Positions 2,429 to 21,952 of a stretch of 64,000 nt of DNA are shown here, in pieces. Source of the stretch: Pseudohongiella sp. O18 (GTDB lineage: Bacteria > Pseudomonadota > Gammaproteobacteria > Pseudomonadales > Pseudohongiellaceae); assembly GCF_021729085.1 (NCBI RefSeq), contig NZ_JAJSAR010000003.1:248001-312000 (forward strand), written 5' to 3'. The notes below the pieces were generated by a model, which was not told the origin of the DNA, did not search any database, and was given only the letters and a program-made list of their open reading frames with translations. Position 1 is the first letter of the stretch; each line of letters opens with the position of its first letter. The translations under genes and the position numbers were made by a program.

Positions 2429-3113
2429 ACAGATAACTGCCAGATTCATCCTGTTCCAGCATAAGCGCCAGCCACTCAGGTAATGTGATTGATTGATTAC
2501 CAATCGGCGACAGGCGAAGCTGAACCTCTGAAACCTGACCATTGTTCATCGTAACAGCAACGTCCAGTGCCACTTCACCAACGTCAATGTGATCCCTCGT
2601 CCCCTGCCCCAGCACCGTGATGCCAGCCTGCGACCAGAGCCCACGTGCGCGGGCTACCGCAGACCCGGCCTGCAAGGCCACTGGCTCAACAAGTTGCAGC
2701 GCCAGGTGGCCCAGCAATCGGACGCTTTCTTCCCGCCACAGGACGGCGGCGGGCATGTCCGCGGAGGCCTGGCTCAGCAACACAGTTCCGTTGGTTTGCA
2801 GGCAGGCGCGGGCGTCTACGGACTGGAGCTGGCCGGCTATCGGGCGGGCACGCGACTGCACATCTGCACACAATTGACCCTGGATGAGTCGGGATGGAAG
2901 CCATTGCCATTGCAGCTCGCCGATATCCAGCACGACCTGTGGCTGCCGTAGCATTGCTCGATCCACTGCGCCCCGCCACAATGTGCCGTCAACACCGAAC
3001 AATTGCAGGCCGGCAACCTGGGCAGGCCCCACCAGCAAAGTCGCCGGTGCAAGCAGTACGATCCATACCAGCGTCATTGGAACCACCAGCCATAGAACGC
3101 GAGTGCTGGTCAC
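2412..3113 (-). CDS. gspN: Type II secretion system protein N
   Basis: Last gene of the gspC-N operon, 233 residues. GspN is an inner-membrane protein with one N-terminal anchor (here about residues 7-28, LWLVVPMTLVWIVLLAP) and a periplasmic body. LFGVDGTLWRGA near residue 40 is typical of the family. It is an accessory, non-universal part of the T2SS and its precise role is poorly defined. Identity rests on that motif, the size and the terminal position after gspM. The start lies one base past the gspM stop. The 3' end overlaps convergent pxpA by 17 bases. Confidence 0.85.
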   Translation of the reverse strand: MTSTRVLWLVVPMTLVWIVLLAPATLLVGPAQVAGLQLFGVDGTLWRGAVDRAMLRQPQVVLDIGELQWQWLPSRLIQGQLCADVQSRARPIAGQLQSVDARACLQTNGTVLLSQASADMPAAVLWREESVRLLGHLALQLVEPVALQAGSAVARARGLWSQAGITVLGQGTRDHIDVGEVALDVAVTMNNGQVSEVQLRLSPIGNQSITLPEWLALMLEQDESGSYLFNWQS

Positions 3114-3114
3114 G

Positions 3115-3612
3115 TCAACGGCCTCTCACTGTGACGTTTACAGACAGGCCCGCGGCCGCTGATGGCACTATGGTCATGCTCTCGACACGGTTACGGCCAC
3201 CCGCCTCGACTGCTGACAGCCACTGCAGCAGATTGTTCATGGCCACCTGCTCCATGCGAATGGTGGCCGACTGACCATCAATCGCAGGTTCCAGTGTGCT
3301 TACCCGCAGGCCGGTTGCGCTTGCCGCATCATCGAGAAACTGCGGCAGACTTGCCATCGCGGTCCCAAGCTGGCGCTCATCGCGCAACTCGATCAACTCC
3401 TGCGCGAGACTCTGTACAGCAAGTACCTGCTGGCGCGCCTCTGTGACCCGTCTTTCTGACAGCTCTCTGGCCGCATTCAGCGGCTGGACGATGGCAGCCC
3501 AAAGCAGGTACACCAGCAGCGACGCACCACATGCCAGCAGCCACAATTGCTCACGTCCGGTAAATTGCTGCCAGCGCTGTATCAACTTGACCTGCAATGC
3601 TCTCAGTTTCAT
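3115..3612 (-). CDS. gspM: Type II secretion system protein M
   Basis: Inner-membrane GspM, 165 residues, a normal length. A short cytoplasmic tail rich in Lys/Arg/Gln precedes one transmembrane segment at about residues 23-42 (LWLLACGASLLVYLLWAAIV). A coiled coil (ARELSERRVTEARQQ) and a small ferredoxin-like periplasmic domain follow. GspM pairs with GspL in the assembly platform that links the GspE ATPase to the pseudopilus. The start codon overlaps the gspL stop as ATGA, which supports stoichiometric synthesis of the two partners. Confidence 0.9.
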   Translation of the reverse strand: MKLRALQVKLIQRWQQFTGREQLWLLACGASLLVYLLWAAIVQPLNAARELSERRVTEARQQVLAVQSLAQELIELRDERQLGTAMASLPQFLDDAASATGLRVSTLEPAIDGQSATIRMEQVAMNNLLQWLSAVEAGGRNRVESMTIVPSAAAGLSVNVTVRGR

Positions 3613-4856
3613 GGCGCTACCCCGCTGACAAGCAGATTGGCCTGTTGCCGACTGCCAGCCTGACTGATATTGCGCGCCTGCGCTGACAGCCCTGCATTTC
3701 CGAGTGCTTCGCTAAAGGCGAGCAGCTGGGAATTGCTCTGCGCAGTCAACGCCAGTTGTAACTCCTGGCGCGCCGCCAGGAAGTTCACACGGTGTACACG
3801 CACATCGCCGTGCTGCAAAAGCACCGGCGCGATCTGATCCAGCAGTGGCAGCACCGATGCGCTGGCACCAGAGCCGCGAAGTTGCGCCAACTGGCTGCGC
3901 AGCTGTTGCTCAGCATCTACCAGTACACCCTGCGGCACGGCAGTCCGGTAAACCTGTTCCACCTGCTGCTGTATGCGGCGATAATCAGCGTTATTGATCT
4001 GCAGTTCTATAAAACTGGACAACATAAAAATCAGCAAGGCTGCCGCCGCTGCAATGACAGGAATCCGCGCCGGTCGCCACAGTTTTTGCCAGCGTACCGG
4101 CGCCGCAAACTGTCCCTGACGCAGTTCGATGGCGCCCGGCATCTCAAACGTCAATGCATCCCAGGGCTCGTTAACAATGGATACTCTCGTCCGGACTTCG
4201 CCCCGAATGCTCTCTGGCAACATACTGACGATATCGTCAGCTTCGGACTGTGAACTCGCAAACACGTGCAACGCCGGCACGTGCAACGCCGGGCTGGCTC
4301 CAGCAACGGCTTCGCGCTGGACTCGTTCTGCAACGAGAGGCAGCATACTGACATCAACAGATAGCCCGAGACCGCTGAGCTGTGTCGGCAGCCAACCATC
4401 GTCAGCTCCGTCCGTGACCAGTATTTTCCAGTCATCGTTATCGCCATCTATCAACTGACCGGTAACAAAACAGCGTGATACTTCAAGGCCCGCTGATTCC
4501 AGGGCTTCTATCTGCTCTGCAAACCACTCCCGGTCAACATAGGCAAGCGTGACGGTCTCCGGCTCAACAGCACCAATGGCAATATGCAGGGATTGAATAT
4601 CACCGGCAATGTCTGACTCCAGTTCAAACGGAATCAGTCGACTGAGATGTTTTCTCTCCTCCGGTCTGTAGGGCAGGCGACGCATGACCAACTGTGGTCC
4701 GTCCAGCATCAGCCAGACCTGAGCACCAGGGTGCTGCTTACACAGCGTTTGCAGTGATCCTTTCTGAGAAGCAGCCAGCCAACCGGCGCGTCGGTCGTAT
4801 CGCCGCCAGCGATAATGACCCGGAGTCGATTCCGGCCTGATTATCAATACACTCAT
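3609..4856 (-). CDS. gspL: Type II secretion system protein L
   Basis: Bitopic inner-membrane protein, 415 residues. The cytoplasmic actin-like domain (about 1-240) recruits the GspE ATPase. A transmembrane helix follows at about 264-284 (PVIAAAAALLIFMLSSFIEL), then a coiled coil and a ferredoxin-like periplasmic domain that contacts GspM. RRLPYRPEERKHLSRLIPFE near residues 59-78 is typical GspL. A perfect 15-bp tandem duplication gives PALHV twice at about 189-198, inside the cytoplasmic domain. It lies between gspK and gspM in the canonical order. Confidence 0.93.
   Translation of the reverse strand: MSVLIIRPESTPGHYRWRRYDRRAGWLAASQKGSLQTLCKQHPGAQVWLMLDGPQLVMRRLPYRPEERKHLSRLIPFELESDIAGDIQSLHIAIGAVEPETVTLAYVDREWFAEQIEALESAGLEVSRCFVTGQLIDGDNDDWKILVTDGADDGWLPTQLSGLGLSVDVSMLPLVAERVQREAVAGASPALHVPALHVFASSQSEADDIVSMLPESIRGEVRTRVSIVNEPWDALTFEMPGAIELRQGQFAAPVRWQKLWRPARIPVIAAAAALLIFMLSSFIELQINNADYRRIQQQVEQVYRTAVPQGVLVDAEQQLRSQLAQLRGSGASASVLPLLDQIAPVLLQHGDVRVHRVNFLAARQELQLALTAQSNSQLLAFSEALGNAGLSAQARNISQAGSRQQANLLVSGVAP
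4263..4292. repeat. Perfect 15-bp tandem duplication inside gspL
   Basis: The 15-base unit CACGTGCAACGCCGG occurs twice head to tail with no mismatch (4263-4277 and 4278-4292). In the gspL frame it duplicates the pentapeptide PALHV. The unit is a multiple of three, so the frame is kept. It looks like a recent slippage duplication in a tolerant loop. Confidence 0.95.
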
Positions 4857-4859
4857 TTT

Positions 4860-5957
4860 TCAATTCACCAGTGTTTCAAACGGATTTTCGTGAAAGGAGT
4901 TGTGATAGCGCGCCAGCGTCGTCACGCCACTCCCGTCACGATGAATCAGTGATGTCAGGTAACGGGAAACCTCACCGATTGTGACCTGTATGTAGGCCAG
5001 AAAATATTCGCTGCTTACGCTGTATGTGGGCACTTGACCTGCGGCGTCCCCTGACTGTCCGGGATCAGACTGCAGGCCAGACTGCTGCGCGGACTGCAAA
5101 AATTCAGTGACAGACACAAAGGCCTGTTGATCCCGCAGCTCCAAAAACGTGTCCACGACGGCCTGCTCAGCAAAGGTCAGGGTGTTTTCGTCATTGACGC
5201 CTGACATCACTGATGCCGATGCCGTGTTGATATTGATGGATGTCGCAACTGGCAGGGCAACCACACGTGGCCGCAATGCCTTCAGAAGCTGCGGCGTGAT
5301 GTGTCGCACCATCGCCAGCTCGCTCACATCATGCATGAGCTGATTCGCAGACTGTGCGACCGTGCCAGCGCCTGTGTAATAAAGTGACTCGGCGCCTGAC
5401 AGGCCACTAACTCGGTCATCCTCGTCGATCCAGTCTACAATAGCCTCGGTGATCGCGACCGCTTGCGCTTCGGTGACAGCCATTTCGGGCAGGCTCTGCA
5501 ACATGCGTATAAAGTGCCGCTGTGCAGCACTGAAACGAACTGAGCTCAATGCGCCCAGATCGTCAAAATTTTCTGTTTTGTATACCAGATTGTTGATATT
5601 GAACCGCCCTTGCGCGTCCTCAATGAATACGCGCAGAAAACCATCGTCGGTTGGCATGGGGGGCAACATCGCAGCCCAGCTCTCACCAAGGTGATCAACC
5701 GGCTCTGCAGGCCTGTCGCCTGCCCGCTGCGAGTCCATAAGCAATACCTGAGCAGCCAGGGTTTCAGCTCCCTGCAGATAGGTATCAAATCGTTGCTGCA
5801 TTAATCTTGCCTCCGCCATCGATGCGCTTCGTACGAAGGACTCAGCAAATTGAGTCGCCAGCACTGCGACCATGGCAGTCACCAGCATGGCCAGTATGAG
5901 TGCACTACCAGTCTGCTGAAGACGCTGGCTTGCAGCTTTTGAATGCTGATCGCTCAC
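4860..5957 (-). CDS. gspK: Type II secretion minor pseudopilin GspK
   Basis: Large minor pseudopilin, 365 residues. The prepilin leader ends ...LQQTG and is followed by SALILAMLVTAMVAVLATQF. Position +5 after the cleavage glycine is Leu, not Glu, and that absence is the hallmark of GspK, which caps the pseudopilus tip with GspI and GspJ. The large globular domain includes GRFNINNLV near residue 113 and the helical SAM-like insert with IVDWIDEDD. The start overlaps the gspJ stop (ATGA). A prepilin peptidase (GspO/PilD) is needed for processing and is not in this window. Confidence 0.94.
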   Translation of the reverse strand: MSDQHSKAASQRLQQTGSALILAMLVTAMVAVLATQFAESFVRSASMAEARLMQQRFDTYLQGAETLAAQVLLMDSQRAGDRPAEPVDHLGESWAAMLPPMPTDDGFLRVFIEDAQGRFNINNLVYKTENFDDLGALSSVRFSAAQRHFIRMLQSLPEMAVTEAQAVAITEAIVDWIDEDDRVSGLSGAESLYYTGAGTVAQSANQLMHDVSELAMVRHITPQLLKALRPRVVALPVATSININTASASVMSGVNDENTLTFAEQAVVDTFLELRDQQAFVSVTEFLQSAQQSGLQSDPGQSGDAAGQVPTYSVSSEYFLAYIQVTIGEVSRYLTSLIHRDGSGVTTLARYHNSFHENPFETLVN

Positions 5958-6706
5958 GTTGATGCTCCGCCCGCTGAAAACGCCATCGGCAACACAAACA
6001 CCCGGCGCACCTCACCCAGACCCGAAACGCGCAAACTGACTTCGATGGCCGCCGGTAAGCGGCGCTGGCGCTGCAGAATTTCGTTGTCCCCGGCAGCAGC
6101 AGCGAGCGGCCAACCCGATATCCAGCCCGCATCATCGATTGATGAGCCCTGGGTAGTGACGCCAACCGGCAGGAACCGCCAGGAGACCTGCTCTACAGCC
6201 TGCAACAGTGGCATGGACTGCATTGGAGGTGTGCCCAGCGCCTGATTGCTTTCCTGCCAAGAATCGCGGTACAGCGTGCCGTCAGGTGACAGGCGGTAGA
6301 GCACCCGTTGCAGCTCCGATCGCGGAGACGCCATTGGGTTGTGCCAGGCGTGTCTGCTGAACCAGATCATGGCACCCTGTCGACCACTGAGTGCTTCCAG
6401 AGAAAACGCATTATGTGGCACTGCCAGCATTACCACCCGCTCATCGGTGTCACCAAGCACTGACTGCAGCGGATCAACCCCAGTGGCCGGCATCGGTAAT
6501 GGGCGATTGGCAATGTGCTCGATATCACCGTTCAATAATTGCCAGAACCGCTCGATCTGCTCTATTTCCTGCATGAGTTGATCGCCGCGTTCACGGGCTT
6601 CTATCGCGCTGTCCAGAAACTGATAGGACACTGCAGCAATCATGACCGTGATTGACATCGCGATCAGCAGTTCGACCAGCGTAAATCCACCCTCAGTCCT
6701 GACCAT
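5954..6706 (-). CDS. gspJ: Type II secretion minor pseudopilin GspJ
   Basis: Minor pseudopilin of the tip complex with GspI and GspK. The leader is cut at TEGG|FTLVELLIAMSI, with the conserved Glu at +5. The frame is open from 6736, but the ATG at 6706 has GGAG six bases upstream and gives a normal seven-residue leader, so I use it; the ATG at 6712 is the alternative. The protein is then 250 residues, somewhat longer than many GspJ. Translation starts inside the end of gspI (14-base overlap) and stops on the gspK start, so expression is tightly coupled. Confidence 0.92.
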   Translation of the reverse strand: MVRTEGGFTLVELLIAMSITVMIAAVSYQFLDSAIEARERGDQLMQEIEQIERFWQLLNGDIEHIANRPLPMPATGVDPLQSVLGDTDERVVMLAVPHNAFSLEALSGRQGAMIWFSRHAWHNPMASPRSELQRVLYRLSPDGTLYRDSWQESNQALGTPPMQSMPLLQAVEQVSWRFLPVGVTTQGSSIDDAGWISGWPLAAAAGDNEILQRQRRLPAAIEVSLRVSGLGEVRRVFVLPMAFSAGGAST

Positions 6707-7130
6707 CGGCATCTCCACTGAGCGCTGAGGGGCCAATCGCCTGAGCAGCAGACAGATAGCTGGTCAGACTGGCCAGCGTGTCGGCAGGCCGCTCCATGGC
6801 TGCCACATCAAGCCGGTGGCGTAGCAGACCCGGCACAGGTGTCTCTTCCACCGACAACTGCCATGACCATCGACGCCCGGCAAGTTCAGTTTCGCCCTCC
6901 CGGAACGCTGCAGTCGACATGATTCCCGCCGCCGCATCCAGCTGTAAATGTGACATCTGATTCTTAGCAACCCAGCTGGCAATGGTTTGCTGGCGAAACC
7001 GGTCGGTAGCATCCAGTTGTGCGCCCAACTGGAACATCAGCGCCGGCAGCGCGATTCCGACGACAAGCAATGCCACCATCACCTCAATCAGGGTAAAGCC
7101 GAGCTGTTCCGATCGCTGATTGTGCATCAT
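6693..7130 (-). CDS. gspI: Type II secretion minor pseudopilin GspI
   Basis: Minor pseudopilin, 145 residues. Its leader is cut at EQLG|FTLIEVMVALLVVG, with Glu at +5. The following WVAKNQMSHLQL segment matches the conserved WxAxNxxxxL pattern of GspI. With GspJ and GspK it forms the tip of the pseudopilus that pushes folded exoproteins through the GspD channel. Two adjacent ATGs are possible (7130, 7127), with GGTGAG upstream. A 63-base gap to gspH is one of the larger gaps in the operon. I see no terminator in it. Confidence 0.93.
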   Translation of the reverse strand: MMHNQRSEQLGFTLIEVMVALLVVGIALPALMFQLGAQLDATDRFRQQTIASWVAKNQMSHLQLDAAAGIMSTAAFREGETELAGRRWSWQLSVEETPVPGLLRHRLDVAAMERPADTLASLTSYLSAAQAIGPSALSGDADGQD

Positions 7131-7193
7131 GCGCTCACCATTGCAGGCTCATTAGCTGAACTGTCCGAACCAGCGGGCTGTGGAAATTTTTCG

Positions 7194-7736
7194 CTACCAC
7201 TGTGTTTCAATGACCCCTGATTCCTGAGTGGCGACACGAGCAAGCTGTGTTTCTCCACTCGCCGTTTGCACTGACAACTGCAAGATGAATGGCGTCGTTT
7301 CGCCAGTCGGATACATGACCAGCACAGGTTCATTTGATTCATCGCCAGATTGGAGCCCACGGCGGGCCAGATCAACAGGCTGTTCTTCGACCCATAAATC
7401 GAGCTGAAGGGATGGCGGTAATTCAGCCTGTAATTCCATGTCGTCATCAATCTGCCACTGACCGTTACGCCAACGAGACCACACGAGCTGCCAGCCTTCA
7501 TCAGCCAAATCTTCAGGTGCCCTCAGATGCATTCCTATCGGTTGCGCCATGACGACTGCCCGATTTGACGCAAGGCCAATCAGCTGGCTCACATCCTCTG
7601 CGATATCCAGAGCCTGGTCGTCAGCGTCTGAACCCCGCCCCACGGAGAACGCCACCGTGCTGACCAGCAGCGCAGCGATTGCCATCACCACAAGAAGCTC
7701 GACCAGACTGAAACCACGGGCCGCGCCAGGGCTCAT
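7194..7736 (-). CDS. gspH: Type II secretion pseudopilin GspH
   Basis: Minor pseudopilin joining the tip complex to the GspG fibre, 180 residues from the chosen start. The leader is cut at GAARG|FSLVELLVVMAI, with Glu at +5. The frame is open to 7826, deep in gspG, but the ATG at 7736 lies four bases past the gspG stop and leaves a seven-residue leader, so it is preferred. The hydrophobic helix is followed by GRGSDADDQALDIAEDVSQL and a beta-rich body, as in the family. The order G-H-I-J-K is canonical. Confidence 0.91.
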   Translation of the reverse strand: MSPGAARGFSLVELLVVMAIAALLVSTVAFSVGRGSDADDQALDIAEDVSQLIGLASNRAVVMAQPIGMHLRAPEDLADEGWQLVWSRWRNGQWQIDDDMELQAELPPSLQLDLWVEEQPVDLARRGLQSGDESNEPVLVMYPTGETTPFILQLSVQTASGETQLARVATQESGVIETQW

Positions 7737-7740
7737 CGGG

Positions 7741-8241
7741 TTACTGTTCCTGATTCTGCCAGTTGCCATAATCAGCGTTTTGCCCCTCACCACCACGCGT
7801 TCCGTCGGCACCAAAGGTAAAGACATCGTACTGTCCGTTCTGACCGGGACTCAGATAGCGATAGGGATTCCCCCATGGATCGACTGGCAGAGCTTCCAGG
7901 TAGCCATCCTGCTTCCAGTTTGTCGGCACCGGCTCCAGCGTCGGTCGGTCTACCAGTGCCTGCAGCCCCTGCTCGCTGCTGGGATAGACATAGTTATCCA
8001 GGCGATACATACGCAACGCAGTTTCGATGGCGCTGAAATCGGCGAACACTTTCTGCACTCGTGCCTCATCGGCACGGCCGAGAACATTGGGCGCAATAAT
8101 GCTGATAAGCAGGCCCATGATGACCAGCACTACCAGTATCTCGATGAGACTGAAGCCTTGTTGCTTCCTGATAGATTTTGCTTCTGGCAGCGCCAGAGCT
8201 GAGCTGTTTGTGCTGTTAACGGCAGCATTTTTAACCAACAT
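7741..8241 (-). CDS. gspG: Type II secretion major pseudopilin GspG
   Basis: Major subunit of the pseudopilus fibre. The prepilin site is KQQG|FSLIEILVVLVIMGLL with Glu at +5. The mature part has PNVLGRADEARVQKVFADFS and the PVDPWGNPYRYLSPGQNGQYD calcium-site region that identifies GspG, and the C-terminal GADGTRGGEGQNADYGNW also fits. I chose the ATG at 8241, with GGGTGAT a few bases upstream, over the in-frame ATG at 8253. The leader is long for a pseudopilin (about 29 residues). Secretion requires assembly from GspG, so it is normally the most abundant product of the operon. Confidence 0.96.
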   Translation of the reverse strand: MLVKNAAVNSTNSSALALPEAKSIRKQQGFSLIEILVVLVIMGLLISIIAPNVLGRADEARVQKVFADFSAIETALRMYRLDNYVYPSSEQGLQALVDRPTLEPVPTNWKQDGYLEALPVDPWGNPYRYLSPGQNGQYDVFTFGADGTRGGEGQNADYGNWQNQEQ

Positions 8242-8265
8242 AGAATCACCCATCGTCTGAACTCG

Positions 8266-9486
8266 TTATATCAATGTGTTGATATCAAAAATTGGCAGCA
8301 GAACTGCCAGCATGATCAATGTCACCAGACCGCCCATCAGCACAATGGTCAGCGGTTCCATCAATGCCATCATGGTGCTGAGCCTGATGCTCAATTCCCG
8401 TTCCTGGTTTTCGGCAGCATAGGCCAGCTGACGCCCCAGGCTGCCATTCGCTTCTCCATTGGCGGCCATCTGCTCAAGGAGTGGAGGAAACGCCGCGCAT
8501 TGACGCAGGCTCTTGCTGAAGCTGCCACCCTCCTGGACTGCAGTGGCCACGGTGCGTGCCGCGGCGCGCATGACCTCGTTATTGAGAACCTGTGCCGCAA
8601 TGCGGACTGATTCCAGCAATGGCACTCCGGAGCCAAGAAGTATCGCCAGCGTCGAAGCAAAACGTGCACTTTCCAGCTGCCGCAGGTTTTCACCAACACC
8701 TGGCACCTTGAGTAAAAATCCATGCCAGCGCAGGCGGTTTTCGACAGCCTGCAGCCACCAGCGAAACAGTACCCCGCCTAATGCAATGGCACACAGCAAC
8801 AGCAAGGCCCATGGTGAGCCCATAAACTCACTGACGCTGATCAAAGCCTGTGTCAGACCAGGCAGGTCACGTCCAGATGTGGCGAACATGGTGACCAGTC
8901 GCGGCACCACAAAGGTCATCAGCAAGGCCACTACCAGCAGGCTGACCGACAGTAATGCCAGAGGGTAGATCATGGCGGTGCTGAGTTTCTGACGCGCCTG
9001 CTGGCCTGTTTCTGTGTACTCTGCCAGGCGCTCCAGCACCGGACCCAAGTAACCCGCGGATTCACCTGCCCGCACCATGGCGCAATACATTCGGTCAAAC
9101 GCCGCCGGGTGCTCTGACATTGCCTGTGCCAGCGAATGGCCTTCGACAACCCGCGACCTGACCTGAGACAGTATGCCTTTCACTTTTATCTGCCGTGACT
9201 GCCGGGCACTGATCTGCAGTGCCTCGTCCAGCGGCATGCCTGATTGCACCAGCGACGCCAGTTGTCTGGTAATTAATGAAAGCTGGGCGACCGACAGGCG
9301 GCGCGGTCGCCACCAGAGAGACTGACCGCCACTGGCATCATTGGCAGCACTGGTCACGGTAACTGTCATGGGTTTCATGCCCTGGCTGCGCAGCCGTGCA
9401 CGCGCCTGACGCTCGCTGTCAGCCTCCAGCACACCACTCACCGGCTTGCTGTCGGCGCCCAGTGCTTTGTAGCGGAACGAAGCCAT
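8266..9486 (-). CDS. gspF: Type II secretion inner-membrane platform protein GspF
   Basis: Polytopic inner-membrane protein, 406 residues, the usual length. It has two repeated cytoplasmic GspF domains (about 70-195 and 270-395) and three transmembrane helices, including LALLSVSLLVVALLMTFVVPRL and, at the C-terminus, TIVLMGGLVTLIMLAVLLPIF. SLVQSGMPLDEALQ and ILLGSGVPLLESV are the paired domain signatures. It forms the base on which the pseudopilus assembles and contacts GspE. It follows gspE by three bases. Confidence 0.96.
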   Translation of the reverse strand: MASFRYKALGADSKPVSGVLEADSERQARARLRSQGMKPMTVTVTSAANDASGGQSLWWRPRRLSVAQLSLITRQLASLVQSGMPLDEALQISARQSRQIKVKGILSQVRSRVVEGHSLAQAMSEHPAAFDRMYCAMVRAGESAGYLGPVLERLAEYTETGQQARQKLSTAMIYPLALLSVSLLVVALLMTFVVPRLVTMFATSGRDLPGLTQALISVSEFMGSPWALLLLCAIALGGVLFRWWLQAVENRLRWHGFLLKVPGVGENLRQLESARFASTLAILLGSGVPLLESVRIAAQVLNNEVMRAAARTVATAVQEGGSFSKSLRQCAAFPPLLEQMAANGEANGSLGRQLAYAAENQERELSIRLSTMMALMEPLTIVLMGGLVTLIMLAVLLPIFDINTLI

Positions 9487-9489
9487 GAC

Positions 9490-10953
9490 CTAGATCCCCG
9501 TGCCCATGGCAGTCACCCGCAGCACCTCTTCCAGACTGGTTTCGCCGGCCAGTATTCGCTGCCTTCCATGCTCGGACAAGGCAGGACTGGTCGCCCGTAC
9601 ATGGGCTTCCAGGGCTGGCTCTCCAGCCTGATCGTGAATCAGTCGACGCATGGTGGCGTCCACCTCCAGCACCTCGTAAAGGCCGGTTCGGCCGCGGTAA
9701 CCGGTGTGGTTGCACTGATCACAGCCGGCGGCTCGCCATACCTGCGTCCCTTCCGTAAATCCGAAACGCTGCTGCTCTGCCGCATCGGTTGCAACCGGTT
9801 GCTTGCAGTCGTTACAGAGACGTCGAACAAGACGTTGCGCCAACACCAGTTGCAGACTGGACGCCAGCAGAAATGGCTCGATGCCCATATCCTGCAGTCG
9901 AGTGACCGCGCCCACCGCCGTGTTGGTATGCAGGGTCGACAACACCAGGTGTCCGGTCAGTGAGGCCTGCACGGCAATCGCCGCGGTTTCCTGGTCACGA
10001 ATTTCACCCACCATCACCACGTCTGGATCCTGTCGCAAAATGGCGCGCAGACCGCGGGCAAAACTCATATCCACTTTGGTGTTGACCTGTGTCTGGCCGA
10101 TGCCGGGAAGCACATATTCAACTGGATCCTCAATCGTCAGAATATTGCGCTCGCGACTGTTGATATGCTGCAGACCTGCATATAGCGTCGTGGTCTTACC
10201 AGAGCCAGTCGGTCCTGTGACCAGTATGATGCCGTGAGGTCTGGCCAGTGCACTGGCAAACAGCGCATGAATGGGTGCCGGCATCTGCAGTTGTTCGAGT
10301 TTCAGCTGACCGGCAGCCTGATCCAGCAGGCGAAGCACCACTCGCTCTCCGAAAGCAGACGGAATGGTGGACAGGCGAATGTCCACCGCGTGACCCGCCA
10401 GCCTGACACTGATGCGCCCATCCTGAGGCAGTCGCTTTTCGGCTATATCCAGACGCGCCATGACCTTGAGACGCGAGACCAGCACAGGTCCCAACTCAGA
10501 GCGTGGCGCCAGCACATCGCGCAGAACACCATCCACGCGGAAGCGGATTGCGACACGCTGTTCAAAAGGCTCGATATGTACATCTGATGCCTGTTCGCGA
10601 ACGGCCTGCGACAACACGGCGTTGATCAGTCTGATCACCGGAGCATTGTCGGCATCAGACAGCAGATCACTGTTGCCGGGAATATCATCAACCAGTGCCG
10701 TCAGGTCGATATCGCCACCCAGCTCATCAGCCGCACGCTGGGCGTCATCTGCCCCACTTTGATAAAGCGTGGTCAGCCGCTGCTGAAATTCGTTTGCTGA
10801 TATTACGACCGGCGTGAATCCATGACCCATGATGCGACGCAGTTCCAGCAGCACATTCAGCGCAGGTTCACCCCGACAGATCACTTCGCCGTCATCAAGC
10901 AGCACACCTTTGCCGTTGGCAAAATCATAGGGCAGAACATAGTGCTGGTTCAC
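9490..10953 (-). CDS. gspE: Type II secretion ATPase GspE
   Basis: Cytoplasmic hexameric ATPase that powers pseudopilus assembly, 487 residues. Walker A GPTGSGKT is at 247-254, the Asp box and Walker B (VVMVGEIRDQETA) follow, and the His box is in LVLSTLHTN. The tetracysteine zinc site is intact as CNDC and CDQC in the C-terminal third. The N2 domain with ASDVHIEPFEQR is also present. The start overlaps the gspD stop as ATGA. It differs from PilB/PilT mainly in this operon context and the GspE-type zinc insert. Confidence 0.97.
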   Translation of the reverse strand: MNQHYVLPYDFANGKGVLLDDGEVICRGEPALNVLLELRRIMGHGFTPVVISANEFQQRLTTLYQSGADDAQRAADELGGDIDLTALVDDIPGNSDLLSDADNAPVIRLINAVLSQAVREQASDVHIEPFEQRVAIRFRVDGVLRDVLAPRSELGPVLVSRLKVMARLDIAEKRLPQDGRISVRLAGHAVDIRLSTIPSAFGERVVLRLLDQAAGQLKLEQLQMPAPIHALFASALARPHGIILVTGPTGSGKTTTLYAGLQHINSRERNILTIEDPVEYVLPGIGQTQVNTKVDMSFARGLRAILRQDPDVVMVGEIRDQETAAIAVQASLTGHLVLSTLHTNTAVGAVTRLQDMGIEPFLLASSLQLVLAQRLVRRLCNDCKQPVATDAAEQQRFGFTEGTQVWRAAGCDQCNHTGYRGRTGLYEVLEVDATMRRLIHDQAGEPALEAHVRATSPALSEHGRQRILAGETSLEEVLRVTAMGTGI

Positions 10954-13001
10954 GGCTGATCTTCCTGCGCCTCGGCATCAGGGGCGTCCAGCAGCGTCTC
11001 CCAGGCAGGCAGCAGTGGCATTTGTGAGTCGCCAAAAATACCACCATGGACAGGCTGTTGCAGAAGCTGTTGATTACGGATGTGTTCGTACTTTTCAGCG
11101 GTTGCGCCGCGCAGGGCGTTGTCATCGCGCAGGATAGTCGGTCGTATGAATACCAGCAGATTGGTTTTCTGCACCGAACTGGAGGTGGAACGAAACAATC
11201 GGCCCAGGCCTGGTACGCTGCCCAGTACCGGCACACGACTTTCACTCTGAACCACATTGTCGCGAATCAGGCCGCCCAGCACCACGGTCTCACCATCTGC
11301 TACCGTTACGCGAGTTTCAATTTTGCGTTCGTTGGTGATCAGGTCCACCGCACCTGCTTTCTGGGAAATGCTGGAGATTTCCTGAGCGATGTCCAGCGCC
11401 ACCTTGTCACCACGATTGACATGTGGCGTGACTCGCAAGGTGGTACCAACATTCTGTCGGGTAATGGTCTGGAACGGATTCTGAACATTACCGCTGTTGC
11501 CCGTGCTGGTGTAGGACCCCGTGATGAACGGCACACTTTCACCAACAGTAATAAGTGCCTCGGTGTTATCCGTGGTCAGGATATTTGGCGTAGACAGAAT
11601 GTTGGCGCCAGAGTTGGCCTGTAACAGATCTATCAGTGCCAGCAGGTCGGTGCTGCCGCCGAGGCGACCGATACCAATGGTCTGTCCGGCAGCACTGGCC
11701 AGACCAGCCGCCAGGTTTTGCAGGCCTTCCTCGCGGTCTTCATTGAGTGCGCCATCGGCAATAAGTCCAAGTCGCTGCAGATTGGCGCCGGGCTCAAAGC
11801 TGCCGGCAAACGCGCCACTTTCGTCCCTGAACAGCCACTGGATTCCGAGGTTCTGCCCCACATCATCATTTATCTCGACGATAATGGCCTCGACCAGAAC
11901 CTGGGCGCGCTGGATGTCCAGCCGCTGCACTACATCCATCAGAGAATCGATGATGTCCATGTCTGCAGTAATGATGACCGCGTTATTGTCAGGGTCAGCT
12001 TCAACACTGGCACGGCGCGCACCATCAGCTGCTGCTCCCTCGGTGACACCCTGCGCCGGCGCCGCACCACCCAGTTGAAAAGTGTTACGTATGACCGAGG
12101 TCAGTACCTCCGCAACACGCTCGGCACTTGCGTATTCCAGATAGACAACACGAGTGTTGCCGGTCTGCTCACGCGGCTTATCAAGCAGGGTAATGAGTTC
12201 CCGGATGGTGTCCCGCTGTCGTTTGCCACCTGTCACCAGCACTGAGTTCGTGCGTGTATCCGCATTGATCTGCAGCCGCGAGGTGACCGGTTCCTGATCA
12301 GCGGCCACCTGGTCTTCATTCATTTCGCGAAGCAGGGCAACAATGTCGCTGGCCTGCGCAAACTGCAGGCTAACGACTTCGGTTTCCGGCACTGAAGACT
12401 GATCAATGCGATCCAGAATCTGTCGAATACGCTGCACATTGGCAACCGTGTCGACCAGAATGATCATATTTCCATCGGGGTAGGCAGACATCTGCCCGTT
12501 GCTTTGCGACACCAGTGGACGCAGCACTGGCAGCACCTGATTAACAGACACATTGTCGAGCTGGATGGCCTCGGTGACATAGCGACTGCTGTCGTTGCTG
12601 TCGTAACTCGAGAATGGCAGCGGCGCCGAGCGCACTTCCTGCGACGGTACGATGCTGACCATATTGTCGCCGGTTTCCACGGCGGTAAACCCGGTGATGT
12701 CCAGGGCTCTGAGAAAGATACGGTAATAGTCCTGAGCGTTGACAGGCGAGCTGCTGATAACGGTTATCTCGCCGCGCACGCGCGGATCCAGAATCATCGT
12801 TTTCCCGGTCACATCCTGTACAGCCCGAATAACCTCGAGAATGTCACTGTTACGAAAATTTGGCGTCCACATGGCTTCCTGGGCAATGGCTGTCACGGAT
12901 GACAATGCCAGCATGAATGACAGGCACAAAGGAGCCATCCAGTCAGGCTGGATCTTGCGGATAAGCAGATTGGCAGGATTCGCTTTCATTAACTCTCTCA
13001 T
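10950..13001 (-). CDS. gspD: Type II secretion outer-membrane secretin GspD
   Basis: Outer-membrane channel of the T2SS. A signal peptide (hydrophobic core LCLSFMLALSSVTAIA, cut before QEA) precedes the N0 domain and three N1-N3 repeats, with VYLEYASAERVAEVL marking a later repeat. The secretin core holds VPFITGSYT and VPVLGSVPGLGRLFRS. The ATG at 13001 lies just past the gspC stop; 13016 and 12989 are also in frame. Length is about 683 residues. No pilotin or GspAB gene is in the window, so how this secretin reaches the outer membrane is not shown here. Confidence 0.96.
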   Translation of the reverse strand: MRELMKANPANLLIRKIQPDWMAPLCLSFMLALSSVTAIAQEAMWTPNFRNSDILEVIRAVQDVTGKTMILDPRVRGEITVISSSPVNAQDYYRIFLRALDITGFTAVETGDNMVSIVPSQEVRSAPLPFSSYDSNDSSRYVTEAIQLDNVSVNQVLPVLRPLVSQSNGQMSAYPDGNMIILVDTVANVQRIRQILDRIDQSSVPETEVVSLQFAQASDIVALLREMNEDQVAADQEPVTSRLQINADTRTNSVLVTGGKRQRDTIRELITLLDKPREQTGNTRVVYLEYASAERVAEVLTSVIRNTFQLGGAAPAQGVTEGAAADGARRASVEADPDNNAVIITADMDIIDSLMDVVQRLDIQRAQVLVEAIIVEINDDVGQNLGIQWLFRDESGAFAGSFEPGANLQRLGLIADGALNEDREEGLQNLAAGLASAAGQTIGIGRLGGSTDLLALIDLLQANSGANILSTPNILTTDNTEALITVGESVPFITGSYTSTGNSGNVQNPFQTITRQNVGTTLRVTPHVNRGDKVALDIAQEISSISQKAGAVDLITNERKIETRVTVADGETVVLGGLIRDNVVQSESRVPVLGSVPGLGRLFRSTSSSVQKTNLLVFIRPTILRDDNALRGATAEKYEHIRNQQLLQQPVHGGIFGDSQMPLLPAWETLLDAPDAEAQEDQP

Positions 13002-13002
13002 A

Positions 13003-13884
13003 TCACGGCAGGCCAAGCGTGGCCCTGTTCAGATTGACAGTCTGCAGGGTGCCGTCGCGTGACACCTGCAGCTGTACCGTTTGTGATTGCTGCAGCTGAC
13101 CCAGCAGGGATTGCAGCTGACCAAGGTCATTGATGGACGTACCATCGACGGCAGTAATGATGTCGCCGATTGCCAGACCGGCATTTGACAGAAGATCGGC
13201 GCGACTGCCATGACGGATGCGCAGACCAGCAACTCCTTCCAGATTGACCATTTGCAACCGCATGACGCGAGCCAACTCTGCTGCCTGGTCCATGCCGGAC
13301 ACTGGTTCCGTCGTGTCCTCACTCACGGAGCTCGACTGGGCAGTCGTAACTGGTGCAACTGCTGAAGTCGCCCCATTGGCTGCAGCAGGATCGTAAAGCC
13401 GAAGTCGCTCTATCCGACCATTGTTGTTCAGCGTGACATGATCACTGAAGATCTGCTCTAGAGTCACACCGGCGGAGGTGCCCTGTAGCACGTCGCCAGG
13501 CCGATAAACCTGTTGCTGGTCACCACTGGCAATGATGGCTCGGGATGAGGACGGCTCAGTGCTGAGTACGGCTCCGCGTAACACAAGTTGTAAGCGAGTG
13601 TCATCGGCAGTAGCAGTTTCACTGACCATGTTTGAAGCAGACAGTCCCCTGGCTTCCGTCAATGTGAATGCCTGGGCTATGCGGGCAAGATCTACAGAAC
13701 GGGACTGAGTCGCAACATTATCGGCGCGCGTTACCGACGGCGGCGCAATACCTTCCGCGGCATCGGGAACCAGCAACCAGAACAGTCTCGCCAGCGAGTA
13801 TCCTGACCAGATCAGCACTGCCAGAGTCAGCAGTACTGCAAGTCCGGACACCCACAGGCGGGTTTGCGCAAGTTTGTTCAGCAT
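13003..13884 (-). CDS. gspC: Type II secretion protein GspC with PDZ domain
   Basis: Bitopic inner-membrane protein that gates substrate entry by binding GspD. A transmembrane helix (about residues 14-35) is followed by the homology region (LVLRGAVLSTEPSSSRAI, then the VYRPGDVL segment) and a C-terminal PDZ domain (GLRIRHGSRADLLSNAGLAI, then GDIITAVDG). The frame is open to 13947, but that would overlap the receptor gene. The ATG at 13884 has GGAG five bases upstream and leaves a 16-base gap, so I use it. That short gap and the lack of a terminator suggest co-transcription with the TonB receptor. Confidence 0.93.
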   Translation of the reverse strand: MLNKLAQTRLWVSGLAVLLTLAVLIWSGYSLARLFWLLVPDAAEGIAPPSVTRADNVATQSRSVDLARIAQAFTLTEARGLSASNMVSETATADDTRLQLVLRGAVLSTEPSSSRAIIASGDQQQVYRPGDVLQGTSAGVTLEQIFSDHVTLNNNGRIERLRLYDPAAANGATSAVAPVTTAQSSSVSEDTTEPVSGMDQAAELARVMRLQMVNLEGVAGLRIRHGSRADLLSNAGLAIGDIITAVDGTSINDLGQLQSLLGQLQQSQTVQLQVSRDGTLQTVNLNRATLGLP

Positions 13885-13900
13885 CGTCTCCGAATAAACC

Positions 13901-16576
13901 TTACAGTTTCCACTGCAGGTCAAGACGCAAACGCGAACCGGTAGCAACGTCGATGATTTTTACATCATCCTGATAGAATTCGCGGTTTTCGTCGAGCAGG
14001 TTCTGCGCACGCAATCTGACAGTAATGCGGTCTGTCGGAAAATAAGAGTACGTCAGGTCCAGTGAGTGGAACGGATTTTCAAACGCATCTGGTGACTCAT
14101 TACGGCCACCGAAGAAGACCCGCTCACCAAACACGTTGTACAGCAATGACGCGGCGTGTCTGCCGTTGTCAGAGTCGTAGCCCAATTGCGTGTTGACCAC
14201 ATATTCCGAGTGGCCAGTCAAACGACGGTCCAGGCTGGTCTGCGAGCTGGCAGCGTCAAATGTCAGCTCGGAATCGCTGAGCACCAGATTGCCACTGACA
14301 AAGAAGCCGCGGCCGATGTTCTTCAGGCCTTCAAACTCCACACCGTAGATCTCGCCAGCCTCTGCGTTGTCAAAGCTCAGCAAACGCGCGTCCTGTGGAC
14401 CTGGTCGTTCAACTCGCTCGATCGGACTGGAGATATCCTTGTAGAACAGTGAAACCGTCAGGTTGTCACCGTTATCAAAGAACATTTCGGTGCGTAGGTC
14501 AAAATGATCAATGTCCGAGAAACTCAGGTTCGGGTTGCCTTGAACACGGTCATTCAACTCGGGGTCAATGAACTGAATGTCTGCGTACTCTCGCAGGTCA
14601 GGACGGACAACCGTCTTGCCATAGCCGAGTCGTACCTGGAAATTATCTGTACCAAACAGGCCATCCTGCATATAGGTCAGTGCTACAGACGGATAGAAAT
14701 CATCATCCCGCAGCAGCGCATTGCTATCTGGCTGGTTAATATCTTCGATTACTTCATTGAGGAAGTCGCCAGAGTAGTCAAGCAGGTTCAATGGAATCAC
14801 GCCGCGGGAGAAATCTTCCCAACGCACACCCGCCGTCATCCGCCAGTTGTCCATAAAGTAAGAGTCCACCATACCGAAGGCAGCGATTTTGCTTTCACCG
14901 GCAACGTAACTCTCGGTACCAAAGTTGGAACCCATGTTCAGGAAGAAGCCATTATCCAGATCCGCCAGGTTATCATCGCTGAAAACCTGCGATGGCAGTC
15001 CTTCGCGACCTGTCGGGCCCATCACGATGTTGGCAGTATAGCCGTAGTACTCACGAGCTTTTTCGCTGTAGTTGTAGCCACCAGAAACGGTGCCATTTGT
15101 GAAACCAAGGTCAAAATGTGCATCAGCCTGATAACCCCAGCTTTCTACACTGTCTTCCAGTTCAAGGAAGGCAAACTGAGCCGACGAGCCAGTGTTGACC
15201 TGGGTTGAAATCAGCTGCTGTGAACCCGGGTCGAGAATATTGGTCGACTGTACCGAGCTTGAATTAGGCACATTGGTGCTGGCCTGGGCGTCTGAGTAGA
15301 ACCAGCGCAGATCAACTCCGTTTACGAAGCTGAACAGACTGCGCATTGGCAGACGTTCGAGGTCGTAGGCTTCCAGGGAATGCTCTCCTACAACCTGGTT
15401 AACGAACAATTCGCGCTGTTCGAGACGCGACACATTAGTCTTGCGCTGGCGACCACTGGCCTGCTGGAAATCGGGGTTGAAGCCCAGCACGATGGACGCC
15501 TGATCTTCATCATCCTGCAACAGGTAGGTGTTGGTGGAAATGGTATGCCGGTCCTGATACGACAGACTCAGGTTCAGTGCAGCAGTCAGACTGTCATTTG
15601 TGAATGTTCGCTGAATATTGCGGAAGGTTTCATCCGGGTTGCTGAAGCTCTGCTCGAACTGATCGGAGTTGCTCTGGCTAGTACCAATTGCGCCGTTGGC
15701 GAGTACACCAAATGTCAGATCATTGTTGATATCAAATGCATTGCCCAGCGTCACGGACGCATTGGTATCCGGATCCAGGGACGTTGTGCTTTCGATATCA
15801 ACATCGCGGTTAATTGAGCGCAGCAGTTCGCGGTTGATGCGAATGCCTTCAAGCCGTTGTGCTTCCGTCGGCGTACCAACACCTGGATACTCAAATCGCG
15901 TGATATTGGAAGGACTGATATCGCCCTGATAAGTATTCAGCGCATTCATGATGCCTTCTGGCAGGTCACCCTGGTCGCCCAGGTTGCGCAAGCCGTCACC
16001 GCTGTTTTCGGTGTTCCAGCCTGCACCCACCGACACATCGAATACCAGGTCATCCGGGGTGCCACGAGTACGAATATCAACGTTGCCGCCACCGAAGGCT
16101 GCCGGCTGGTCTGATGAATAGGCCTTGTGAACTTTCACTGACTCCAGAATCGAGGCAGGAATGTAGTCCAGCGGAATCACGTTGCGGCTCAGCTCAGGTG
16201 AAGGAATTTCTGCACCGTTCAGTGTTGCGCTGGAGTAGCGCTCACCCAGACCACGCACATAAATGAACTTGCCGTCCACCAGCGACAGACCAGTCACGCG
16301 GCGCAAAGCCATGGCCACATCGGAGTCACCGGCGCGTGAGATTTGCTCGACGCCGACCACTTCGGCAGCGAAGGGCTGTTCCACCCGCTCCATGATGATG
16401 GAGCGCGCCGCATCACGCAGGCGTCCCATGACCATGATTTCTTCCACCTGGGGTGCCGGGACCTGGGCAGCCTGTCCAGCCTCTTCCTGCGCCAGGACCT
16501 TAGCTGAAACGGTTGCTGCACCTGACATTACGACTGCAATCGCACACGTCAGTTTGCGTGGTTGCCAGTTCATCAT
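13901..16576 (-). CDS. TonB-dependent outer-membrane receptor
   Basis: About 891 residues: a signal peptide (ending ...TVSAKVLAQ), a likely TonB box around EEIMVMG, a plug domain (ISRAGDSDVAMALRRVTGLS, IYVRGLGERYSSATLNG) and a 22-strand barrel. Transport is energised by TonB-ExbBD; the substrate is not evident. There is no N-terminal signalling domain or CarboxypepD-like domain. The frame opens at a GTG at 16585, but AGGTGAT sits eight bases before the ATG at 16576, which I prefer. The last residue is Leu, not the usual aromatic. It lies between the beta-helix lipoprotein and gspC, all on one strand, suggesting a joint function in nutrient capture. Confidence 0.93.
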   Translation of the reverse strand: MMNWQPRKLTCAIAVVMSGAATVSAKVLAQEEAGQAAQVPAPQVEEIMVMGRLRDAARSIIMERVEQPFAAEVVGVEQISRAGDSDVAMALRRVTGLSLVDGKFIYVRGLGERYSSATLNGAEIPSPELSRNVIPLDYIPASILESVKVHKAYSSDQPAAFGGGNVDIRTRGTPDDLVFDVSVGAGWNTENSGDGLRNLGDQGDLPEGIMNALNTYQGDISPSNITRFEYPGVGTPTEAQRLEGIRINRELLRSINRDVDIESTTSLDPDTNASVTLGNAFDINNDLTFGVLANGAIGTSQSNSDQFEQSFSNPDETFRNIQRTFTNDSLTAALNLSLSYQDRHTISTNTYLLQDDEDQASIVLGFNPDFQQASGRQRKTNVSRLEQRELFVNQVVGEHSLEAYDLERLPMRSLFSFVNGVDLRWFYSDAQASTNVPNSSSVQSTNILDPGSQQLISTQVNTGSSAQFAFLELEDSVESWGYQADAHFDLGFTNGTVSGGYNYSEKAREYYGYTANIVMGPTGREGLPSQVFSDDNLADLDNGFFLNMGSNFGTESYVAGESKIAAFGMVDSYFMDNWRMTAGVRWEDFSRGVIPLNLLDYSGDFLNEVIEDINQPDSNALLRDDDFYPSVALTYMQDGLFGTDNFQVRLGYGKTVVRPDLREYADIQFIDPELNDRVQGNPNLSFSDIDHFDLRTEMFFDNGDNLTVSLFYKDISSPIERVERPGPQDARLLSFDNAEAGEIYGVEFEGLKNIGRGFFVSGNLVLSDSELTFDAASSQTSLDRRLTGHSEYVVNTQLGYDSDNGRHAASLLYNVFGERVFFGGRNESPDAFENPFHSLDLTYSYFPTDRITVRLRAQNLLDENREFYQDDVKIIDVATGSRLRLDLQWKL

Positions 16577-16615
16577 ATTCATCACCTTTACCTTAATCTA
16601 TGCCTTTCTGGAAAC

Positions 16616-16640
16616 CCGAACGGGGACAAGTCCTGTTCGG
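16616..16640 (-). other. Hairpin between the lipoprotein and receptor genes
   Basis: CCGAAC and GTTCGG form a 6-bp stem around an inner GGA/TCC pairing. On the minus strand the hairpin follows the lipoprotein stop and is not followed by a T-run, so it is a poor intrinsic terminator. It may protect the upstream mRNA end or act as a partial attenuator setting more lipoprotein than receptor. Confidence 0.4.
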
Positions 16641-16680
16641 CCTCATCCCCGCTCTGGGCTGCGCTTGATTGCGCTGACTG

Positions 16681-18391: not shown

Positions 18392-18409
18392 TTGTCAGAA
18401 CTGTGACAA
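18392..18409. promoter_or_regulatory. Perfect inverted repeat TTGTCA-N6-TGACAA
   Basis: An 18-bp palindrome with 6-bp arms lies about 60 bases before the lipoprotein start, in the likely 5' leader. The arm is the same hexamer found in the Pho-box-like direct repeats at 18516-18533. It could be a second protein-binding site or an RNA hairpin. Confidence 0.4.
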
Positions 18410-18496: not shown

Positions 18497-18533
18497 ATAG
18501 TAATGACACTGTTACATGACAAAATCATGACAA
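18497..18533 (-). promoter_or_regulatory. Pho-box-like direct repeats and -10 upstream of the lipoprotein-receptor-T2SS unit
   Basis: Read on the minus strand, TTGTCAT-GATT-TTGTCAT (18533 to 18516) is two identical 7-bp units with an 11-bp period. This is the layout of a PhoB box (consensus CTGTCAT, 4-nt AT-rich spacer, CTGTCAT). A -10-like TACTAT (18502-18497) follows at about the distance seen in Pho promoters, where the box replaces the -35. A third GTGTCAT (18509-18503) is slightly out of phase. The orientation points to the lipoprotein gene, with an untranslated leader of about 160 bases. The divergent sulfur gene at 18558 could also be affected. Confidence 0.6.
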
Positions 18534-18557: not shown

Positions 18558-19598
18558 ATGATCTTCAGACAACTGTATGATTCGGTATCTTCCACCTACA
18601 CTTACCTACTGGCAGATGAACACTCGGGTCAGGCGATCCTGATCGACCCGGTATTCGAACAGGTGACCCGCGATCTTGCCATGCTCAGAGAACTGGAGCT
18701 CAAACTAAAGATCGTTGCTGATACCCACGCACATGCCGACCACGTTACTGCAGCATGGCTTTTGAAGCAGCATACAGGCTGCTGGATAGCCTCGTCAGCT
18801 GCTGCCGGAGCCGAAAACGTTGACCTGCCACTAAAGCACGGCGACAAATTTGGCGTGCAGGGTGTAAAGCTGGAAGTCAGGGCCACACCGGGCCATACCG
18901 CCGGTTGTCTGACTTATGTGCTGGACGATTACAGCATGGCATTCACTGGTGATGCATTATTGATCCGCGGCTGCGGACGCAGCGATTTTCAGCAGGGCGA
19001 TGCATCTCGCCTGTACCACTCCATAACCGAGCAGATTTTCTCACTGCCTGACGATTGCGCCATCTACCCCGCCCATGACTACAATGGACGCACACGCTCG
19101 TCCGTCGCGGAAGAAAAGCTGCACAATCCCAGAGTAGGGGGAAATGCAAATGAAACCGATTTTGTACAATACATGAAAGCCATGCAATTACCTCATCCCA
19201 AAAAAATAGATGAGGCACTTCCTGCGAACATGCGAAGTGGCAAACCAGAAGACGGCAAGTTACCTGACGAACCCGACTGGGCAGATATTCGCATAAGTTT
19301 CGCAGGCATCCCCGAGGTAACACCAGAATGGGTAGTACATAACCAGCCATCTGTGACAATCATTGATGTTCGCGAAGCCGAAGAGGTTGAACAGGATATT
19401 TCAATTCTCAGCAACGCCATCAGCATCCCATTAAATCAGCTGCGTGATCGTCTTTCAGAAATACCCGGCGACAAACCGATAGTGACTCTTTGCCGCTCAG
19501 GCAAACGATCATCGCTGGCCTACAGCATTCTGAAAAGCGCTGGCTTTGACAAAGTTGCCAACATCCGGGGCGGCATTCTGAATCTTCCTGCCCGTTAA
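18558..19598 (+). CDS. Persulfide dioxygenase-rhodanese fusion (ETHE1-like)
   Basis: 346 residues with two domains. Residues 1-240 are an ETHE1/Blh-type metallo-beta-lactamase fold with THAHADH at 56-62, His113 in TPGHTAG, Asp132 in TGDALL and His173 in PAHDY. Residues 250-346 are a rhodanese domain with catalytic Cys312 in CRSGKRS. ETHE1 enzymes use one iron to oxidise glutathione persulfide to sulfite, and the rhodanese moves sulfane sulfur, so the fusion probably detoxifies sulfide in the cytoplasm. AGGAA precedes the ATG. It stands alone; no sulfide:quinone reductase or CstR regulator is adjacent. Confidence 0.88.
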   Translation: MIFRQLYDSVSSTYTYLLADEHSGQAILIDPVFEQVTRDLAMLRELELKLKIVADTHAHADHVTAAWLLKQHTGCWIASSAAAGAENVDLPLKHGDKFGVQGVKLEVRATPGHTAGCLTYVLDDYSMAFTGDALLIRGCGRSDFQQGDASRLYHSITEQIFSLPDDCAIYPAHDYNGRTRSSVAEEKLHNPRVGGNANETDFVQYMKAMQLPHPKKIDEALPANMRSGKPEDGKLPDEPDWADIRISFAGIPEVTPEWVVHNQPSVTIIDVREAEEVEQDISILSNAISIPLNQLRDRLSEIPGDKPIVTLCRSGKRSSLAYSILKSAGFDKVANIRGGILNLPAR

Positions 19599-21566: not shown

Positions 21567-21571
21567 CTGAC

Positions 21572-21943: not shown

Positions 21944-21952
21944 GATGTCCCT

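What the first reader, a model, noticed from the sequence alone, without database searches (positions are those of the whole stretch)
18497..18533. Pho-box-like direct repeats facing a lipoprotein-TonB receptor-T2SS unit
Two identical TTGTCAT units with 11-bp period on the minus strand, followed by a -10-like TACTAT, match the layout of a PhoB promoter (PhoB box in place of -35). The first gene downstream is the lipoprotein, then the receptor, then gspC-N with no evident terminator. If real, a complete T2SS would be induced by phosphate limitation. Pho control of a T2SS is known for the Hxc system of Pseudomonas aeruginosa, but not, to my knowledge, in this gene arrangement.
Basis: partly seen in the sequence, partly recalled or inferred. 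Interest (0 to 1): 0.75.

Follow-up and report, generated by a model that had tools for sequence, protein, structure and literature searches.

The report
Phosphate-starvation promoter of an ElpS-type operon
A marine bacterium appears to carry a phosphate-starvation switch in front of genes for a surface lipoprotein, an outer-membrane receptor and a protein-secretion machine, an arrangement already described in Caulobacter.

Summary
The repeat is real. TTGTCAT-N4-TTGTCAT (18516-18533, minus strand) is the window's best match to a Pho-box matrix built from pst/phoB loci of ten genomes (21.6 bits; 0 of 150 shuffled windows reach 21.5). A strict pattern has 7 matches in the 3.47-Mb genome; the others include pstS, pstC, a phosphate-selective porin and a phosphoesterase gene. 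The backward pattern has 5. Sense-strand boxes recur before related lipoprotein genes: at least 12 bits in 16 of 26 loci, window included, antisense 0 of 26; among named loci 43 of 79, against 31 of 458 other genes, antisense 13 of 79. Fifteen of 80 named loci hold phoB- or pst-like genes nearby. Pho control of the lipoprotein is very likely. Control of the whole T2SS is plausible but open: no box precedes receptor or gspC, and a strong hairpin follows the lipoprotein gene. The novelty claim fails: Caulobacter elpS-TonB receptor-gspC-N with phosphate-induced elpS was published in 2010, and its T2SS was placed in the PhoB regulon in 2024. A new member of a known kind; the recurring box before lipoprotein-receptor pairs is worth following.

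The parts
18516..18533 (-). Pho box (site 1), TTGTCAT-N4-TTGTCAT
   Evidence: best matrix score in the window
18503..18509 (-). third TGTCAT-type unit (GTGTCAT), 13 bp after the second, out of the 11-bp register
   Evidence: sequence
18497..18502 (-). -10-like TACTAT, 13 bp from the box (own pstS has 10 bp)
   Evidence: its role is inference
18392..18409 (-). second, weaker Pho-box-like site TTGTCACAGTTCTGACAA, starting 79 bp before the lipoprotein ATG
   Evidence: 12.7 bits
16681..18330 (-). ElpS-like lipoprotein, 549 aa, lipobox Cys19; no Pfam or NCBIfam match
16618..16654 (-). hairpin between lipoprotein and receptor genes, no U tract; other spacers of relatives also fold
13901..16585 (-). 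TonB-dependent receptor (PF00593, PF07715; TIGR01782 below its cut-off)
13003..13947 (-). gspC (PF11356, PDZ); the ORF as listed overlaps the receptor by 47 bp, true start may be later
10950..13016 (-). gspD secretin
9490..10953 (-). gspE ATPase
8266..9486 (-). gspF
7741..8253 (-). gspG
4860..7501 (-). ORFs 7127-7501, 6693-7130, 5954-6736, 4860-5957 in the positions of gspH, I, J, K (named by position; I, J, K have matches in the same order in relatives, H gave none)
   Evidence: no family search was run on these four
3609..4856 (-). gspL (TIGR01709 over cut-off)
3115..3612 (-). gspM (weak match to a GspM model, far below its cut-off)
2412..3113 (-). gspN (PF01203)
18558..19598 (+). divergent MBL-fold protein with C-terminal rhodanese domain; its ATG is 24 bp from the Pho box

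Best explanation
The direct repeat is a PhoB-binding box that activates transcription of an ElpS-type surface lipoprotein gene when phosphate is short. PhoB~P binds the 11-bp repeat in place of a -35 element, and transcription runs through the lipoprotein and TonB receptor genes into gspC-N, with a hairpin after the lipoprotein gene that probably lets less message reach the receptor and T2SS genes. Shown by computation: the box, its likeness to the genome's own pst/phoB/porin boxes, its recurrence before related lipoprotein genes, the gene order. Inferred: PhoB binding, the start site, readthrough past the hairpin into gsp, and that lipoprotein, receptor and T2SS together serve phosphorus scavenging.
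For: Matrix from 24 sites hand-chosen from the scan of pst/phoB loci of 10 genomes, none from lipoprotein genes: site 1 scores 21.6; with 11 sites from outside the genus 18.7, still the window's top site; 0 of 150 shuffled windows and 0 of 2000 shuffled spacers reach 21.5. Strict pattern: 7 matches in the genome, among them pstS, pstC, a Porin_O_P gene, a calcineurin-like phosphoesterase gene (there inside the first 53 bp of the ORF as listed) and this site. The genome has PhoB over cut-off, PhoU and Pst. Related lipoprotein genes: sense score at least 12 in 16 of 26 loci (window included), antisense 0 of 26; named loci 43 of 79 against 31 of 458 other upstream regions. The four other genus members fetched have lipoprotein-receptor-gspC in order and a box of 16.9 bits or more. 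G110 keeps a 22.4-bit box with no MBL match in the 1500 bp upstream. phoB- or pst-like genes lie in the fetched flanks of 15 of 80 named loci.
Against: No expression or binding data. The strict pattern read backwards also has 5 matches in the genome, so specificity rests on where the 7 lie, and 2 of the 7 are not before an evident Pho gene. Antisense scores of at least 12 occur in 13 of 79 named loci. The -10-like element is 13 bp from the box, not 10. The 28 nt after site 1 resemble the genus promoters only weakly (8% of window positions do as well), and MAFFT aligned the relatives' boxes with site 2, not site 1. 5 of 26 loci have no convincing box (L021, L025, L026, L031, L033); two of them (G168, G189) have gsp genes about 7 kb after the receptor. 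In the nine alphaproteobacterial loci with gsp genes after the receptor only 2 of 9 score at least 12, so the matrix does not support a box in most of the loci that most resemble Caulobacter. The hairpin may stop most readthrough. In Caulobacter the receptor was reported constitutive and the T2SS produced in rich and poor media, gspE and gspL rising 1.7-fold in poor medium, against the later PhoB-regulon listing.
Confidence: 0.8

Rival explanations
1. The box is a working Pho box, but only the lipoprotein message responds; receptor and T2SS genes are made from other promoters and the hairpin ends or trims the induced transcript.
For: Strong spacer hairpin; spacer hairpins with T-rich tails in L016, L024, L035 (read); Caulobacter RT-PCR as reported. 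Box and gsp genes come apart: of 20 relatives, 12 showed no gsp genes in the stretches fetched (mostly downstream), and in 2 (G024, G135) gspE-to-gspD lie upstream of the lipoprotein gene and its box, where the box cannot drive them.
Against: No U tract after the hairpin in the window; no promoter-like site on the minus strand between lipoprotein and receptor in a simple consensus scan; T2SS counted in the Caulobacter PhoB regulon.
Confidence: 0.38
2. Site 1 serves (or derives from) the operator of the divergent MBL-rhodanese gene, and site 2 at 18392-18409 is the true counterpart of the relatives' lipoprotein box.
For: Site 1 is 24 bp from the MBL ATG; four relatives have a near-palindrome ATGAC-N6-GTCAY 31-34 bp from that gene, scored as a box toward MBL at 20.6 and 16.8 bits in two of them (L099, L100); MAFFT aligns site 2 with the relatives' boxes.
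Against: Site 1 is a direct repeat reading toward the lipoprotein and scores 21.6 against 12.7 for site 2; the best score toward MBL in the window is 6.5. G110 has the box without an MBL match upstream. The sequence after site 2 fits the genus promoters worse than that after site 1.
Confidence: 0.12
3. Chance repeat without function.
For: Loose pattern not enriched in the window; backward pattern 5 against 7 in the genome.
Against: Shuffles and recurrence before related genes.
Confidence: 0.04

Closest known systems
Caulobacter crescentus elpS (cc0170)-cc0171-gspC-N
   Same: Same gene order (lipoprotein, TonB-dependent receptor, gspC-N), phosphate-starvation induction of the lipoprotein gene, T2SS counted in the PhoB regulon (PMC2996285, PMC11208175).
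   Different: Alphaproteobacterium; there ElpS release depends on the T2SS and the receptor was reported constitutive.
Pseudomonas aeruginosa Hxc T2SS (named in the finding; details recalled)
   Same: Phosphate-regulated T2SS.
   Different: As recalled, it exports an alkaline phosphatase and lacks this lipoprotein-receptor head.
Classical PhoB promoters (E. coli phoA, pstS; recalled) and this genome's pstS, pstC, phoB and porin boxes
   Same: Two TGTCA-type units, 11-bp period.
   Different: -10-like element 13 bp away; 10-11 bp at pstS, pstC and phoB.

Membership tests
PhoB box | two direct units, 11-bp period, YTGTMAY-like | tested here: met
PhoB box | genome encodes PhoB, PhoU and Pst with such boxes | tested here: met
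PhoB box | -10 element at about 10 bp | tested here: inconclusive
   13 bp to TACTAT; only weak alternatives closer (sequence)
PhoB box | conserved upstream of related genes | tested here: met
   16 of 26 at 12 bits or more, 5 of 26 without a convincing box; 43 of 79 against 31 of 458; but 2 of 9 in alphaproteobacterial loci with gsp genes
PhoB box | PhoB binding and phosphate response | not testable with these tools
   needs experiment
ElpS-type operon | lipoprotein, TonB receptor, gspC-N on one strand | tested here: met
   gspH-K by position
ElpS-type operon | lipoprotein homologous to Caulobacter ElpS | not tested
   ElpS sequence not in hand; homologues in nine alphaproteobacterial loci with gsp genes downstream
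ElpS-type operon | T2SS-dependent release of the lipoprotein | not testable with these tools
   needs experiment

The most novel reading that the evidence does not exclude
The basic unit is not the T2SS operon but an old Pho-controlled pair, a surface lipoprotein (perhaps beta-helical) plus its own TonB receptor, spread over marine Gammaproteobacteria and beyond and sometimes set beside phoB/pst. The pair would capture a phosphorus-bearing polymer or organophosphate and pass it inward; T2SS genes joined it several times, downstream (this genus, alphaproteobacteria) or upstream (G024, G135).
Probability: 0.4. Interest if true: 0.6.

Novelty: new member of a known kind. Interest (0 to 1): 0.38.

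Why it matters
If true, a published Caulobacter phosphate-starvation system extends to the Pseudohongiella group and, as a lipoprotein-receptor pair, to many marine Gammaproteobacteria. That makes the unknown job of ElpS-like proteins (no Pfam or NCBIfam match here) testable: a receptor and a lipoprotein switched on together by phosphate hunger point to a phosphorus-containing ligand.

Tried and rejected
Loose pattern counts were uninformative (43 matches against 26 for the backward control). The first upstream extraction was wrong because genome-search loci are not turned; redone. Using the stretch after the boxes to decide between site 1 and site 2 gave no clear answer. A fold model of the lipoprotein (mean pLDDT 69; residues 1-48 and 459-549 below 50) found only weak matches in the PDB, mostly beta-helix enzymes and tailspikes among the 50 listed, none at E up to 0.001, and a profile search of PDB sequences found nothing up to E 1; a beta-helix is a lead only. 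PADLOC gave nothing. In one search my start-codon rule picked inner starts in L132, L137 and L141; they stayed in the count of 79, and L168 was dropped for short upstream (80 loci to 79). In one search, L032 (cut start) was dropped, and L036-L038 (multi-domain ORFs) were not scored. The 458 control regions include genuine Pho genes (for example phoB in L128), and shared descent was not corrected for, so the Fisher values are descriptive. A draft of this report said that gsp genes were absent near the pair in 14 of 20 relatives; the GspD places showed two (G024, G135) just upstream, outside the first fetch, and searches confirmed this, so it is 12 of 20 in the stretches fetched; upstream of those 12 only about 0.6 to 3 kb was looked at. 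After that check the confidence of the best explanation went from 0.82 to 0.80 and that of the first rival from 0.35 to 0.38. Direct comparison with Caulobacter ElpS was not possible.

Full report
What is there. On the minus strand at 18533..18516 the sequence is TTGTCATGATTTTGTCAT, followed after 13 bp by TACTAT at 18502..18497. A third unit, GTGTCAT at 18509..18503, is out of register. A second site, TTGTCACAGTTCTGACAA, lies at 18392-18409. Downstream on the same strand are a 549-aa lipoprotein, a TonB-dependent receptor and gspC-N; H to K are named by position. The divergent gene 18558-19598 encodes an MBL-fold protein with a rhodanese domain. The closest named relatives of the lipoprotein, at 80-81% identity, are a Pseudohongiella MAG, 'Gammaproteobacteria bacterium LSUCC0112' and two further gammaproteobacterial MAGs, so the window most likely comes from the Pseudohongiella group.

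More than chance. I built a matrix from 24 sites, hand-chosen from a consensus scan of pst and phoB loci in ten genomes, none from lipoprotein genes. Site 1 scores 21.6 bits, the best in the window; the next are 14.8 (50189-50206) and site 2 at 12.7. A matrix of the 11 sites from outside the genus also ranks it first (18.7). None of 150 shuffled windows and none of 2000 shuffled copies of the 227-bp spacer reached 21.5. In the whole genome a strict pattern has 7 matches, and 5 when read backwards as control. The 7 are at pstS, pstC, a Porin_O_P gene, a calcineurin-like phosphoesterase gene (inside the first 53 bp of the ORF as listed, whose start may be later), this site, one before a gene of the uridine kinase family, and one between chemoreceptor and GGDEF genes.

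Recurrence. Of 194 genomes of the order searched, 67 (own included) have a match to the lipoprotein, many covering only its central part; the 30 best gave loci, of which I examined 27 and scored 26, the window's own among them. Sense-strand scores are at least 12 in 16 of 26 and antisense in 0 of 26. Five have no convincing box (L021, L025, L026, L031, L033). Among 80 named loci, 79 could be scored: 43 have a sense score of at least 12 within 250 bp (46 within 300 bp, antisense 13), against 31 of 458 other upstream regions. Several relatives show four half-sites in an 11-bp register (L016-L018, L024, L028, read by eye).

Neighbours. The receptor follows the lipoprotein on the same strand in 20 of 20 relatives fetched at 20 kb and within 4.5 kb in 69 of 80 named loci (8 of the other 11 have no receptor match, some of them on short contigs). 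Among the 20 relatives gsp genes follow directly in the 4 genus members, about 7 kb on in 2 (G168, G189), lie upstream on the same strand in 2 (G024, G135, order gspE to K then D, then lipoprotein), and were not seen in the stretches fetched in 12. In nine alphaproteobacterial loci (L134, L151, L156, L157, L163, L165, L167, L170, L171; class partly from recalled taxonomy) GspC or GspD matches follow the receptor, the Caulobacter order; only 2 of these 9 have a sense score of at least 12, one of them beyond 250 bp. In 15 of 80 loci a PhoB-like match (50% identity or more), PstS, or PstC with PhoU lies in the fetched flank; in L128 and L131 the phoB-like gene is the nearest divergent match. All 21 genomes checked have a GspD over the family cut-off somewhere.

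What the operon probably does. PhoB~P would switch on the lipoprotein gene and, by readthrough, receptor and T2SS genes. No box precedes receptor or gspC: best scores -0.3 and 4.4 in the window, 0.0 or below in the four genus relatives. The 98-nt spacer folds at -39.7 kcal/mol (z -5.6); its 37-nt hairpin lacks a U tract. The spacers of the 17 relatives folded are also strongly structured (-20 to -42 kcal/mol over 110 nt, no shuffles run on these). I expect more lipoprotein than T2SS message; that is inference.

Which gene. Site 1 reads toward the lipoprotein; the best score toward MBL is 6.5. G110 keeps a 22.4-bit box with no MBL match in 1500 bp upstream. But site 1 is close to MBL, two relatives have a strong box-like site toward MBL, and alignment does not settle whether site 1 or site 2 is the counterpart of the relatives' box.

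What is known. PMC2996285 (passages and Discussion seen) describes cc0170 (ElpS), cc0171 and gspC-N in this order in Caulobacter, a similar organisation in Xanthomonas, Sphingomonas and Hyphomonas, elpS induction by phosphate starvation, a constitutive receptor, and T2SS genes expressed in rich and poor media (1.7-fold rise in poor). PMC11208175 (passages and section 11 seen) counts the T2SS among PhoB-regulated functions. The two differ on the T2SS. The arrangement and its phosphate control are therefore not new. I saw no paper on wider Pho-box recurrence before such genes in Gammaproteobacteria in the listings, in a library that lacks most subscription journals.

Verdict. A real Pho box with high probability, an ElpS-type operon in a new lineage, T2SS induction plausible but open. 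The part worth following is the wide lipoprotein-receptor pair with its Pho box.

Noticed in passing
L098, L099, L100, L066 (31-34 bp before the MBL-rhodanese gene): A near-palindrome ATGAC-N6-GTCAY in four genus relatives, a possible operator of the divergent MBL gene, not seen in that form in the window.
   Followed up: partly
G000:C1:617909-619684: A second GspD-type secretin over the family cut-off outside the window; the other four genus members searched also have two.
   Followed up: no
L036, L037, L038 and G106: Lipoprotein-related ORFs of about 1175-1288 aa with three or four separate matches, as if the domain were repeated in tandem.
   Followed up: no
L182:618-1553 (G000:C3:225816-225833): A strict Pho-box match at the start of a calcineurin-like phosphoesterase ORF beside an ABC transporter ATPase, a likely further Pho operon about 22 kb before the window.
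   Followed up: partly
L186, L187 (G024, G135): T2SS genes in the order gspE, F, G, I, J, K, then D, upstream of the lipoprotein gene on the same strand.
   Followed up: partly
window 20811-24478: A response regulator and a hybrid histidine kinase with PAS/GAF domains near the operon on the other strand; the regulator matches the PhoB model only weakly (114 bits against a cut-off of 296).
   Followed up: no
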